Positions 23,659 to 28,603 of a DNA stretch of 59,881 nucleotides are shown here, in pieces. Numbering within the stretch: position 1 is the stretch's first letter; each line of letters starts with the position of its first letter. The notes below the pieces were generated by a model that saw only the letters and a list, made by a program, of their open reading frames with translations, was not told the origin of the DNA and ran no database searches. The stretch is from an uncultured Eubacteriales bacterium (GTDB lineage Bacteria; Bacillota; Clostridia; Lachnospirales; CAG-274): contig CASFCZ010000061.1 of assembly GCA_949293325.1 (NCBI GenBank), forward strand, positions 1-59,881, in the 5' to 3' direction. The position numbers were made by a program, and so were the translations under genes.

Positions 23659-25599
23659 CTATTTTATCATTTCAACAAAAGCTTCTTCGCTAATTATTGG
23701 AATATTAAGTTCCTTTGCCTTCTTGTTTTTGCTTGAAGCAGAATTTACATCATTATTTATCAAATAGTTAGTTTTTGATGATACACTGCCTGTTACCTTT
23801 CCGCCAAGTCTTTCTATTTCTTCCTTTAACTCACGTCTGTTTTTATAAATATGCACATCACCTGTAATAACAAAGCTTATACCATCAAGACTTCCTTTAT
23901 TGATGCCTTCCTCAGGCTCAACAATACTTAAGTATTCCATTGCTTTCTTTACAAGATCAACATTGTCCTTATAGCTGAAATACCTTGTAACTGCACTTGC
24001 TATTATCTCTCCGAAACCATCTATCTCCTCAAGCTCCTCTTGTTTTGCTGAGATTATTCTGTCAATATCATAATCACATTTTTTACAAAGAAGTTTAGCA
24101 TTGCTTAATCCTACATGATTGATTCCAAGAGCATAAATAAAATTAGGCAGAGCAACTTTTTTTGCTTTTTCTATAGAACCCAGAAGATTATCGGCTGATT
24201 TCTTTCCAAAGCCATCCATTTGGGTAATATCATCCCTATATTTTTCAAGACTAAATATATCTGTATAGTTATCGAGATAACCTCTGGAAATAAATTTTTC
24301 TATGGTAGCCTCTGACAAACCCTCAATATTCATGGCATCCCTTGATACAAAATGAACCAGTGCCCTTAATCTTTGTGCCTTACAGTTTGGATTAGTACAC
24401 TTAAGAACCTTACCATCAGCGGAACCCACTATCTCGGTTTCCTCACCGCACACCGGACATTTATCAGGAATAACCAGGGTATTACTTTCAGTCAAATTTT
24501 CAGCCACCTGTGGGATAATCATATTCGCCTTATAAACGGTTATTCTGTCACCTATACCAAGCTTGAGCTGCTCGACTATACTTACATTGTGAAGACTTGC
24601 TCTGCTTACTGTGGTTCCTTCAAGCTCCACACTGTCAAATATAGCTATTGGATTGATAAGCCCTGTTCTTGATGTATTCCACTCCACGTCCCTGAGAACA
24701 GTTTCGGCTACTTCGTCAGCCCATTTGAAGGCAATGGAGTCCCTTGGAAACTTTGCAGTACTTCCAAGTAATTGGGAATAACTGATGCTGTTGTAAGTAA
24801 GCACAAGTCCATCTGTTGCAAACTCATTTTGAGGTATGTTATCCTCAAACCATTTTACTGCATCTTCAACTGTATTTCCTGTTACCACACGGCGTATAAC
24901 GGTCTGAAATCCCATACTGTCAAGATAATCTAACCAGTCTGTCTTTAAATCTCCAAGTGAATTACCTTCAGCACTCACCAGAGAAAAGGCAATAAAACAT
25001 ACATTTCTCTTAGCTGCAATGCTGCTGTCCAGCTGTCTTACAGTTCCACTGCACAAATTTCGTGGATTTTTATATTGTTCCTCTCCTTCCAGAAGACTAT
25101 TAATCCTTTCAAACTCCTTAAAAGAGATAACTGCTTCACCCCTTACTACCATTTCACCCTTAAATGGTATCCTGAAAGGGATGTTTTTAAAACACAAAGC
25201 ATTATGGGTAATATCCTCACCTATTTCGCCGTTTCCCCTTGTAACTGCACTTACCAAAGCGCCGTTATTATATGTCAATACAACGGTAAGTCCGTCCATT
25301 TTATAGGAAAGTATGCCCTCCTTATCTTCAAGAAAACTTTTTAGCCTTTCCACATCTTTTGTCTTATCAAGGGAAAGCATCCTGCTTTCGTGCCTTACCT
25401 TCTTTAAGGAACTTAAAACCGTATATCCTACTTTTTTTGTAGGACTGTCTCCAAGTACTATACCTGTTTCCTTTTCCAGAGCAACAAGCTCATCATAAAG
25501 TTTGTCATACTCAAAATCACTCATTATACTGGAATCCTTCTGATAATAGCTTTCAGCTGCTTTATTTAGAAGTTCCACAAGCTCTTTCATTCTGTCCAT
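23659..25599 (-). CDS. ligA: NAD+-dependent DNA ligase LigA
   Basis: LigA seals nicks during replication and repair using NAD+. Started at the ATG at 25599 (GGAG seven bases upstream) it has 646 residues, slightly shorter than the usual 660-680. Domains: Ia helix pair, adenylation domain with nucleophile K100 in SYKMDGLTVV and RGNGEIGEDITHN, OB fold, the four-Cys zinc finger (CPVCG...CTNPNC), helix-hairpin-helix repeats (MNIEGLSEATIEKF, MDGFGKKSADNLL, IDGFGEIIASAV) and a C-terminal BRCT domain (GISFVITGDVHIYKNRREL). The active-site Met in KMDG replaces the common Leu/Ile and is tolerated. A longer in-frame N-terminus has no ribosome binding site and runs into the upstream terminator. Confidence 0.95.
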   Translation of the reverse strand: MDRMKELVELLNKAAESYYQKDSSIMSDFEYDKLYDELVALEKETGIVLGDSPTKKVGYTVLSSLKKVRHESRMLSLDKTKDVERLKSFLEDKEGILSYKMDGLTVVLTYNNGALVSAVTRGNGEIGEDITHNALCFKNIPFRIPFKGEMVVRGEAVISFKEFERINSLLEGEEQYKNPRNLCSGTVRQLDSSIAAKRNVCFIAFSLVSAEGNSLGDLKTDWLDYLDSMGFQTVIRRVVTGNTVEDAVKWFEDNIPQNEFATDGLVLTYNSISYSQLLGSTAKFPRDSIAFKWADEVAETVLRDVEWNTSRTGLINPIAIFDSVELEGTTVSRASLHNVSIVEQLKLGIGDRITVYKANMIIPQVAENLTESNTLVIPDKCPVCGEETEIVGSADGKVLKCTNPNCKAQRLRALVHFVSRDAMNIEGLSEATIEKFISRGYLDNYTDIFSLEKYRDDITQMDGFGKKSADNLLGSIEKAKKVALPNFIYALGINHVGLSNAKLLCKKCDYDIDRIISAKQEELEEIDGFGEIIASAVTRYFSYKDNVDLVKKAMEYLSIVEPEEGINKGSLDGISFVITGDVHIYKNRRELKEEIERLGGKVTGSVSSKTNYLINNDVNSASSKNKKAKELNIPIISEEAFVEMIK

Positions 25600-25641
25600 G
25601 TCAATTCTCCTTATAATACAGGATATTCTTATATCAAAAAA

Positions 25642-25668
25642 CAGGGAGTGAAAGCTATCCACTCCCTG
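25642..25668 (-). terminator. Intrinsic terminator of the SLH protein gene
   Basis: A perfect 9-bp stem CAGGGAGTG/CACTCCCTG, loop 9 nt, followed on the minus strand by TTTTTTGA; 26 nt after the stop codon and just upstream of ligA. Confidence 0.9.
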
Positions 25669-25694
25669 CTTATTATACCTCTTTAAGGTCAGTC

Positions 25695-27041
25695 TTATTT
25701 CATTAAATCAAGAACCTTGCTTATAATAACAGCAGCCTGTGCCCTTGTTGTGTTATCCTTTGGCTGAATGTTATTACCTGTACCACTTACTATGCCACCC
25801 TCAACCATAGCTGCAAGACTATCTACAGCATAAGCTGAAATAGAATCCTTATCAGCAAACTGATCAAGTACACTTACATCTCCGGTAAGTGAAGTACCTG
25901 TCTGCATCTCAACAGCCTTTTTGGCAAGAATCATCATATCCTGTCTTGTAATATTATTTTCAGGACTGAATGTACCATCATTGCTGCCTGAAGCAATGCC
26001 CATTTCCTTTGCAATACCTACTGCATTGTAGTAATACTTGTCAGCTCTTACATCACTGAAGTTATCAGATGCTGACTTGGTGGTATCAACACCCATTGCT
26101 TTTAAAAGCATAATGATAAAATCTGCTCTCTTAACATTATCTCCCGGCTTAAAGGTATTATCATTATAACCATTTACAATACCTTGAGAAGCAAGAGAGT
26201 TAATATAGTCTTCAGCCCATGGATAATTACCTAAGTCAGTAAACGCAGGAGCCTGTGTAGTTGTAGCCTCTGTAGTTGTTTCTGTTACAGCAGTTGTTGC
26301 CTCAGTTGTAGCTTCTGTAGCAGTTGTTGTAGTGCCGTTTGAACCAGAACTACTTGATGAACTTGATGTATTGCTGCCTGAGGAGTTTGATGTAGTTGTT
26401 TCTGTTGTAGTTTCAGCAGACGTTGTTGTAGTTTCTGTAGTAGTTACAGTAGTATTTTCGTTAGCAGATATATTATCATCTTTAATAGCACCAACTATAA
26501 CCTTTGGTATGGTAATTGAATAAGCCATATTGCCTACTGATTCCATAGGTGTACGGCAAATATCTGCTAATGTAAAGCCAAGATCAGCATTGCCGTTACC
26601 TACCGCCTTAAAGTATACTCTTAAAAGAGTACCTGAATTTTCAGCTTCCTTAAGGACTAAGTTTTCATCCGGCTCAGAAATATAATTGGAAAATCTTATC
26701 TCTCCTGACTGAGGATCGGTAGCATTAACACGATCATCAACATTATCAGAAGGGAACAAAGGTATCTCTGCACCAGCCATAGAACTATTATAATAAAGCA
26801 AATCAGGAGCAGCTTCCTCAGTAAGAGCAGGAACTACAACGTCAGGGTTATAACTGATTCCAAAGGTTGCATTGTTTATACCGGGGTTAGCTGTAACGTC
26901 AAGGTCTAAATAGAACACGTCACCAACTTCAACATTGTCATCACTTACTACTGCTTCCCATTCAAAATCAAGGGCAAAAACAGGTTATGCAGATGTAAAA
27001 ACTGCTAAAGCCATTATAACAGCTAAAAATCTTTTTTTCAT
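25695..27041 (-). pseudogene. Cohesin-like/SLH surface protein interrupted by an in-frame stop in the signal peptide
   Basis: The frame begins at the ATG at 27041 with GGAGG nine bases upstream and a promoter behind it. It encodes a textbook signal peptide (MKKRFLAVIMALAVFTSA), then TAA at 26985-26987 as codon 19, then continues in the same frame PVFALDFEWEAVVSDD for 430 more codons. The rest is intact: a cohesin-like beta domain (about codons 28-185; VEVGDVFYLDLDVTANPG, ATFGISYNPDVV), a Thr/Ser-rich linker, and three S-layer-homology domains (FKPGDNVKRADFI, FSPENNITRQDMM, IQPKDNTTRAQAA). Cohesin plus SLH is the layout of cell-surface anchoring scaffolds that bind dockerin enzymes. The only visible lesion is the stop. 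Internal initiation at GTG 26918 would give a protein lacking the signal peptide. Sequencing error, a real nonsense mutation or phase-variable/readthrough expression are the alternatives. Confidence 0.85.
26245..26470 (-). repeat. Low-complexity Thr/Ser-rich linker coding repeat
   Basis: Degenerate reiterations of ACA/ACT and GAA/GAG codons (TTTEATTEATT-type) plus a Ser/Gly run separate the cohesin-like domain from the SLH domains. Such linkers are flexible, usually glycosylated and prone to length change by slippage. Confidence 0.75.
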
Positions 27042-27081
27042 AAGATAGAAACCTCCATATTGAATTTTATTCTTGAAGTAT

Positions 27082-27142: not shown

Positions 27143-28603
27143 TTATGAAGTCCTGTATTCATATACTTCCGATATAGGTGTAAGGCTTTCCATGTTTTCC
27201 AGCGCAAAAGCATGGACCGTATCTCCTGTCATATAACCCTCATAGTGACATATTCCGTCATTAAAAATCATTGAATCATAGACCTTTGCCCTGCTGTATT
27301 TGCCATCAGAAAAAAACGAAAGGACAAGACTTAAATTTTTTAAATCACTCTTTGTAAATAATTTTAATACAAATTGAGTGTTATCTGTTTGTTTTCCAAC
27401 CATGTAGCAGATTTCATCATCAGGCATAGAATAGAGGTATTCCATCTGCATACAATCCGGAATACCTTCACCAGTATAATCCTCATTAAGATATAAAGCA
27501 CCACCCTCTAATATGCTAAGGTAGTCATCAGGGGTCATATCTGGATGTTCTGACAGGAATAAGGCAGTAATACCTGCTACAACAGGTGCAGAAAATGATG
27601 TTCCGTTAGCCATCACATAAGCATTGTCAGATGAAATGCCGGGCATTCTAAACAATCCTCCGCACGCCACAACATTTATCCTGTAATTTTTTTGGGAATA
27701 GGATGCCCTTTTAAATGACTTATCCGTTGCTCCTACACTTATAGCTCCAGGACTTGATGCAGGATAACATAAAGCTGACGCAACAGAGCTGTCACTGTCA
27801 CTTCCGCTGTTTCCTGCCGCAGCTATAACAATAACACCCTTGCTATTTGCATATTCAACTGCTTTGTTAATTTCACCATACCCCGAAGTAACTCCCAATG
27901 AAGTAGTAATTATATCACAGTCATAGGTATCCACGGCTGCCATAATGGCACTTAACATATTTGATGAGGTACCCTGTGTTTCTCCGTTGATGTTAGTCAT
28001 TGCCACAAGAGGCACTATGGTCGCATCAGGTACAATACCTGCCATACCTATACCATCATTTCTGCCTGCCACAAGTATACCTGTTACCATTGTACCATGG
28101 CGAAATGTATCAGACGTATCTGTTGAATTGGTAATAAAGTTATAACCAACTTCTATATCGGCATTTACAAATTCCTGATGATTTCTGTTAACACCTGTAT
28201 CAATTACACCTATCCTGACCTTTCCGCTTGGTTTATAGGTATTGATATATTCCGTAATACCACACTGGTCAAAGTATACCTGATCCGAAAAATACGGATC
28301 GTTATACTCAGCCATGGCAGTTACCTCACTTTTAAAAGACATACTCTCCTTATAATCACTTGTGTCGGGTATAACAAGAGGCTTGTCCTCACTTATAGAG
28401 CTTGCTTCACCTCTTTCAAGGAGCAATTTTGCCATATCTTCATCAGCAAGAAACATTCCCAGATTCTCCGATATTACCTTAAGACCATATCCTCCAAGGT
28501 CGGCATCCTCTGCTGCTGTTACAATATAGTCAGATGCAAATACAGTTAATGGGCTAAAAACAAGAAATATCAGAAATATGGTTAAAAAATATATCCGCTT
28601 CAC
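27143..28603 (-). CDS. Secreted subtilisin-like serine protease (S8 family)
   Basis: A 486-residue exported protease. The first 23 residues form a signal peptide ending VFA. After a ~95-residue prodomain-like region comes the S8 catalytic domain with D135 in IGVIDTGVN, H169 in FRHGTMVTG, the oxyanion Asn region in AAAGNSGSDS and S336 in NGTSFSAPVV. A C-terminal ~90-residue domain of unknown role follows. Translation starts at GTG 28603, overlapping the stop of trhP as GTGA, so expression is coupled to that gene although no functional tie is evident. Being exported, it probably trims surface or extracellular proteins. No cell-wall anchor is visible. Confidence 0.9.
   Translation of the reverse strand: MKRIYFLTIFLIFLVFSPLTVFASDYIVTAAEDADLGGYGLKVISENLGMFLADEDMAKLLLERGEASSISEDKPLVIPDTSDYKESMSFKSEVTAMAEYNDPYFSDQVYFDQCGITEYINTYKPSGKVRIGVIDTGVNRNHQEFVNADIEVGYNFITNSTDTSDTFRHGTMVTGILVAGRNDGIGMAGIVPDATIVPLVAMTNINGETQGTSSNMLSAIMAAVDTYDCDIITTSLGVTSGYGEINKAVEYANSKGVIVIAAAGNSGSDSDSSVASALCYPASSPGAISVGATDKSFKRASYSQKNYRINVVACGGLFRMPGISSDNAYVMANGTSFSAPVVAGITALFLSEHPDMTPDDYLSILEGGALYLNEDYTGEGIPDCMQMEYLYSMPDDEICYMVGKQTDNTQFVLKLFTKSDLKNLSLVLSFFSDGKYSRAKVYDSMIFNDGICHYEGYMTGDTVHAFALENMESLTPISEVYEYRTS

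What the first reader, a model, noticed from the sequence alone, without database searches (positions are those of the whole stretch)
26985..26987. In-frame TAA inside the signal peptide of a cohesin-like/SLH surface protein
The ATG at 27041 has a good ribosome binding site and promoter, then an ideal signal peptide, then TAA as codon 19 exactly where the cleavage region (PVFA) follows, then about 430 intact codons. Nothing else in the gene is damaged, and the promoter, linker and three SLH repeats are preserved. A real nonsense mutation would remove a surface scaffold; a recoded or read-through stop would make expression conditional; an assembly error is the dull explanation.
Basis: partly seen in the sequence, partly recalled or inferred. 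Interest (0 to 1): 0.68.

Follow-up and report, generated by a model that had tools for sequence, protein, structure and literature searches.

The report
Lone nonsense codon in cohesin-SLH gene
A gut bacterium's gene for a cell-surface anchoring protein carries a single stop codon in its export signal; relatives lack it, nothing suggests the cell reads through it, and similar stray stops (one in an essential gene) occur elsewhere in the same draft genome, so it is most likely an ordinary broken allele or a base-calling error.

Summary
On the minus strand, ATG 27041-27039 starts an 18-codon signal-peptide stub, TAA lies at 26987-26985, and 429 open codons follow. The protein is a one-cohesin anchoring scaffoldin: cohesin fold, Ser/Thr linker, three SLH repeats. 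Its nearest relative is syntenic and intact, and all 29 family homologues examined have an unbroken N-terminus. I found no support for recoding or programmed readthrough: TAA ends 63% of genes here, none of the 36 tRNAs found has a stop-reading anticodon, the RNA around the stop has no special fold, and the stop is not conserved. A scan of 727 kb of this draft genome (about 575 coding stretches) found two other lone in-frame stops: a TAG in essential smc, inside a tight cluster of amino-acid-changing differences 0.9 kb from a contig end (almost certainly a consensus error), and a TAG in a homocysteine methyltransferase/MTHFR gene. So this is one of about three stray stops. A recent real nonsense allele (about 0.52) and a consensus error (about 0.41) cannot be told apart without reads. 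The genome keeps an intact second cohesin-SLH protein, so loss would be tolerable. Ordinary; low interest.

The parts
27052..27056 (-). ribosome binding site GGAGG, 10 nt before the ATG
   Evidence: sequence
26988..27041 (-). codons 1-18, first part of the signal peptide (MKKRFLAVIMALAVFTSA)
   Evidence: aligns with intact signal peptides of relatives
26985..26987 (-). in-frame TAA, codon 19
26973..26984 (-). PVFA, the cleavage region of the signal peptide, after the stop
26505..26969 (-). cohesin-fold domain
   Evidence: profile match to type II cohesins, predicted structure and its PDB matches
26244..26489 (-). Thr/Ser-rich linker
   Evidence: translation
26115..26243 (-). SLH repeat 1
25935..26063 (-). 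SLH repeat 2
25731..25859 (-). SLH repeat 3
25639..25671 (-). terminator-like hairpin after the gene
27143..28603 (-). S8 (subtilase) peptidase gene upstream, intact; same order in relatives
23659..25662 (-). NAD-dependent DNA ligase (LigA) downstream, intact; same order in G002

Best explanation
The gene encodes a one-cohesin SLH-anchoring scaffoldin: exported by a signal peptide, held to the wall by three SLH repeats, and able to hold a dockerin protein by its cohesin. In the strain or population behind this draft genome, a single recent substitution has made codon 19 a TAA. Ribosomes stop inside the signal peptide and release an 18-residue stub. The first in-frame start codon after the stop lies 22 codons on (GTG 26918), would give a protein without a signal peptide, and has no good ribosome site. 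The allele is therefore a null allele, tolerated because the genome keeps another cohesin+SLH protein and many other SLH proteins. Shown: the stop, the anatomy, intact relatives, the intact paralogue, the standard code. Inferred: that the base is real, and that the product is lost.
For: The stop and anatomy are plain in the sequence. The syntenic same-genus orthologue and all 29 family homologues read have an unbroken N-terminus. The site is mid-contig, the residues on both sides are normal, and one substitution is enough to make it. The gene is accessory: the genome has a second, intact cohesin+SLH protein on contig C96. The code is standard: TAA ends 327 of 520 sampled frames, and none of the 36 tRNAs has a stop-reading anticodon.
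Against: No reads were available. The same draft genome has a lone stop in essential smc inside a mismatch cluster, which is almost certainly a consensus error, so errors of this kind do occur here. The gene shows no further decay.
Confidence: 0.52

Rival explanations
1. Consensus or assembly error, or a minority nonsense variant fixed by the assembler: the organism's gene has a sense codon at position 19 and makes a normal surface scaffoldin.
For: In 727 kb of this draft, three lone in-frame stops appear in about 575 coding stretches. The one in smc, an essential gene, sits 0.9 kb from a contig end in a tight run of amino-acid-changing differences from a close relative, the mark of a local error. 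Nothing else in the cohesin-SLH gene is damaged.
Against: At the cohesin-SLH site there is no visible cluster of odd residues and no contig end nearby. The comparison is weaker than for smc because the nearest relative with this gene is only 56% identical.
Confidence: 0.41
2. Conditional expression: the TAA is real and is read through or recoded, so that the surface scaffoldin is made at a low or regulated level.
For: The frame stays open and well conserved for 429 codons after the stop. The base after the stop is C, which is the rarest after TAA at real gene ends here (21 of 327) and is not the strong UAAU signal (PMC5289835).
Against: The stop is absent from all 29 family homologues read. 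No tRNA with a stop-reading anticodon was found. RNA around the stop folds no better than shuffles (z 0.8 and 1.4 downstream). UAA has the least readthrough of the three stops (PMC5289835). No ABC-transporter or other SLH match in the genome contains a stop.
Confidence: 0.03
3. The true start is downstream and the first 18 codons are a separate leader peptide or unused; the protein is made from GTG 26918.
For: A GTG start lies at 26918.
Against: That GTG lies inside the cohesin domain and has no good ribosome site. The part after the stop still carries the PVFA cleavage motif, so the two pieces form one signal peptide. Homologues carry a signal peptide at the same place. Cohesin and SLH domains act outside the cell.
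Confidence: 0.01

Closest known systems
SLH-anchoring scaffoldins of cellulosomes (e.g. ScaB, ScaC, ScaD and ScaF of Acetivibrio/Clostridium thermocellum; class 'SLH-anchoring' in PMC11557425)
   Same: Signal peptide (split here by the stop), cohesin fold nearest to cohesins of known structure including type II, flexible linker, three SLH repeats, in a genome with 25 dockerin matches.
   Different: One cohesin only, so divergent that Pfam misses it in this protein; in this genome the frame is interrupted in the signal peptide; binding to a dockerin is untested.
Ordinary nonsense alleles (recent pseudogenes)
   Same: A single disabling stop in an accessory gene, with the rest of the frame intact and relatives unbroken.
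   Different: Not proven to be in the organism: no reads were available.
Consensus errors in draft metagenome-type assemblies
   Same: The same draft has a near-certain example in smc.
   Different: No clustered mismatches and no nearby contig end at this site.

Membership tests
SLH-anchoring scaffoldin | at least one cohesin module | tested here: met
   profile match to type II cohesins, best E 2e-7; all 50 PDB rows shown for the predicted structure are cohesins
SLH-anchoring scaffoldin | SLH module in the same protein | tested here: met
   three SLH repeats over the curated cut-off
SLH-anchoring scaffoldin | exported by a signal peptide | tested here: inconclusive
   signal peptide present but cut by the TAA; intact in relatives
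SLH-anchoring scaffoldin | cohesin binds a dockerin | not testable with these tools
   dockerins are present in the genome; binding needs an experiment
Programmed stop-codon readthrough | stop conserved at the same place in relatives | tested here: not met
   no stop in 29 of 29 homologues read
Programmed stop-codon readthrough | stimulating RNA structure near the stop | tested here: not met
   no stretch folds better than shuffles
Genetic code reassignment | the codon occurs in frame in many conserved genes | tested here: not met
   TAA ends 327 of 520 sampled frames; lone stops are about 3 in 575
Genetic code reassignment | a tRNA that reads the stop codon | tested here: not met
   36 tRNAs found, none with such an anticodon; genome about 95% complete
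Nonsense allele (pseudogene) | intact orthologues in relatives | tested here: met
Nonsense allele (pseudogene) | the stop is present in the organism's DNA | not testable with these tools
   needs raw reads or an independent assembly; the scan of genome contigs returned no copy of the same species

The most novel reading that the evidence does not exclude
The TAA is real and kept in the population as an on/off polymorphism of a surface scaffoldin, perhaps with occasional bypass, so that display of dockerin proteins differs between strains. The lone TAA in a cohesin-dockerin gene of a same-genus genome (G001) would be a parallel case.
Probability: 0.04. Interest if true: 0.45.

Novelty: new member of a known kind. 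Interest (0 to 1): 0.1.

Why it matters
As a stop codon it matters little: it is one of about three stray stops found in a sample of a draft genome. Its use is practical. It shows how to tell recoding from ordinary nonsense or assembly noise, and it flags that this assembly carries base errors in essential genes. The protein family itself, a one-cohesin SLH anchor that Pfam does not recognise in this protein, is a lead on how this family of uncultured gut Clostridia displays dockerin proteins.

Tried and rejected
1) The 'stops_inside 1 TAA' flags for G047 and for the G002 S8 gene: the G047 flag was read and is only the gene's terminal stop; the G002 flag looks the same but was not read separately. 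2) G001 as a closer comparison: its assembly lacks the whole region, LigA included, so absence of the gene says nothing. 3) Suppressor tRNA: none found. 4) RNA structure around the stop: none. 5) Internal restart: no start with a good ribosome site near the stop. 6) Frameshift-like flags from the scan (L186, L196, L197) were read and are ordinary gene junctions; L142 and L198 are also not interrupted genes by my reading. 8) Literature searches for stop rates in metagenome-assembled genomes gave nothing usable. 9) Plasmid collection: no match.

Full report
What is there. On the minus strand, GGAGG (27056-27052) precedes ATG 27041-27039. Eighteen codons encode MKKRFLAVIMALAVFTSA, TAA stands at 26987-26985, and 429 codons stay open to TAA 25697-25695. 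The part after the stop begins PVFALDFEWE, so the n- and h-regions of a signal peptide lie before the stop and the cleavage motif after it. The claimed promoter does not stand out from shuffled sequence.

What the protein is. Pfam finds three SLH repeats only. A profile of eight relatives finds type II cohesins among solved structures (best E 2e-7). The predicted structure of the N-domain (mean pLDDT 79) matches cohesins in all 50 rows shown. Between the two parts lies a Thr/Ser-rich linker. The architecture is that of an SLH-anchoring scaffoldin, defined in PMC11557425 as at least one cohesin paired with an SLH domain. The genome holds 25 dockerin matches and a second, intact protein with a cohesin domain and SLH repeats on contig C96. 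So the function is plausible and at least partly redundant; which dockerin it binds is unknown.

Relatives. The same-genus genome G002 has the orthologue in the same order, S8 peptidase - cohesin/SLH - LigA. It is 56% identical, with the signal peptide intact. All 29 homologues read from the family have an open frame through the N-terminus. The second same-genus genome, G001, lacks the region including LigA, so it gives no information. The stop is therefore private to this genome as far as can be seen.

Is it recoded or read through? TAA ends 327 of 520 sampled coding frames. None of 58 ABC-transporter or 29 SLH matches in the genome contains a stop. ARAGORN on all 36 tRNA loci finds ordinary anticodons only, none cognate to a stop codon. 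The RNA around and after the stop folds no better than shuffles. UAA has the least readthrough of the three stops, and a following C is merely not the strongest context (PMC5289835). No start with a good ribosome site follows the stop closely; the first in-frame start is GTG 26918 inside the cohesin domain. I give readthrough 3%.

How unusual is it in this genome? I scanned 727 kb of the genome, sampled as stretches, for coding frames that run up to a stop with coding sequence on both sides. Apart from ordinary gene junctions, three lone stops appear in about 575 coding stretches: this one, a TAG in smc (contig C15, position 935), and a TAG in a homocysteine methyltransferase/methylenetetrahydrofolate reductase gene (contig C56, 19061). 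These gene names are from my own reading of the translations. smc is generally essential or important for growth (own knowledge). Its stop lies within 0.9 kb of a contig end, inside a tight run of amino-acid-changing differences from G001, which is 98% identical over the preceding 154 residues. That is the mark of a local consensus error. The MTHFR stop has intact counterparts in G001 and G002. So the draft carries what look like base errors that create stops, and the finding belongs to a small class of stray stops in it.

Real or error? For a real mutation: the site is mid-contig, the neighbouring residues look normal, one substitution is enough, the gene is accessory, and a paralogue remains. 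For an error: the smc case indicates that such errors exist here, and the gene shows no further decay. As a rough bound of my own: with 1287 bases, 4% of substitutions giving stops, and an assumed indel rate, a neutral frame would gather about one further disabling change per 0.7-2% divergence. If real and null, the stop is therefore recent. I put a real recent nonsense allele at 0.52 and an error at 0.41. Reads would settle it.

Verdict. A small side observation: G001 also has a lone TAA in a cohesin gene (two cohesins plus a dockerin). Two cases are too few to claim anything about scaffoldins, and both genomes are drafts.

Noticed in passing
L145 position 935 (G000:C15): In-frame TAG inside smc, within a tight cluster of amino-acid-changing differences from the close relative G001, 0.9 kb from a contig end: probably a consensus error in this draft.
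   Followed up: yes
L151 position 19061, minus strand (G000:C56): Lone in-frame TAG in a homocysteine methyltransferase/MTHFR fusion gene; intact in G001 and G002.
   Followed up: partly
L212 / L220 position 5425, minus strand (G001:C19): A same-genus genome has a two-cohesin plus dockerin gene cut by a lone in-frame TAA in its second cohesin.
   Followed up: partly
window 27143-28603 and 25695-27041: An S8 (subtilase, mycosin-like) peptidase gene stands just upstream of the cohesin-SLH gene here, in G002, and in about ten of the other family genomes examined: a conserved pair whose link is unknown.
   Followed up: partly
G000:C96 (L211), G000:C9, G000:C12: The genome encodes many SLH proteins, some near 2000 residues, and over 20 dockerin matches: a rich surface-display system in an uncultured gut Clostridia lineage.
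   Followed up: no
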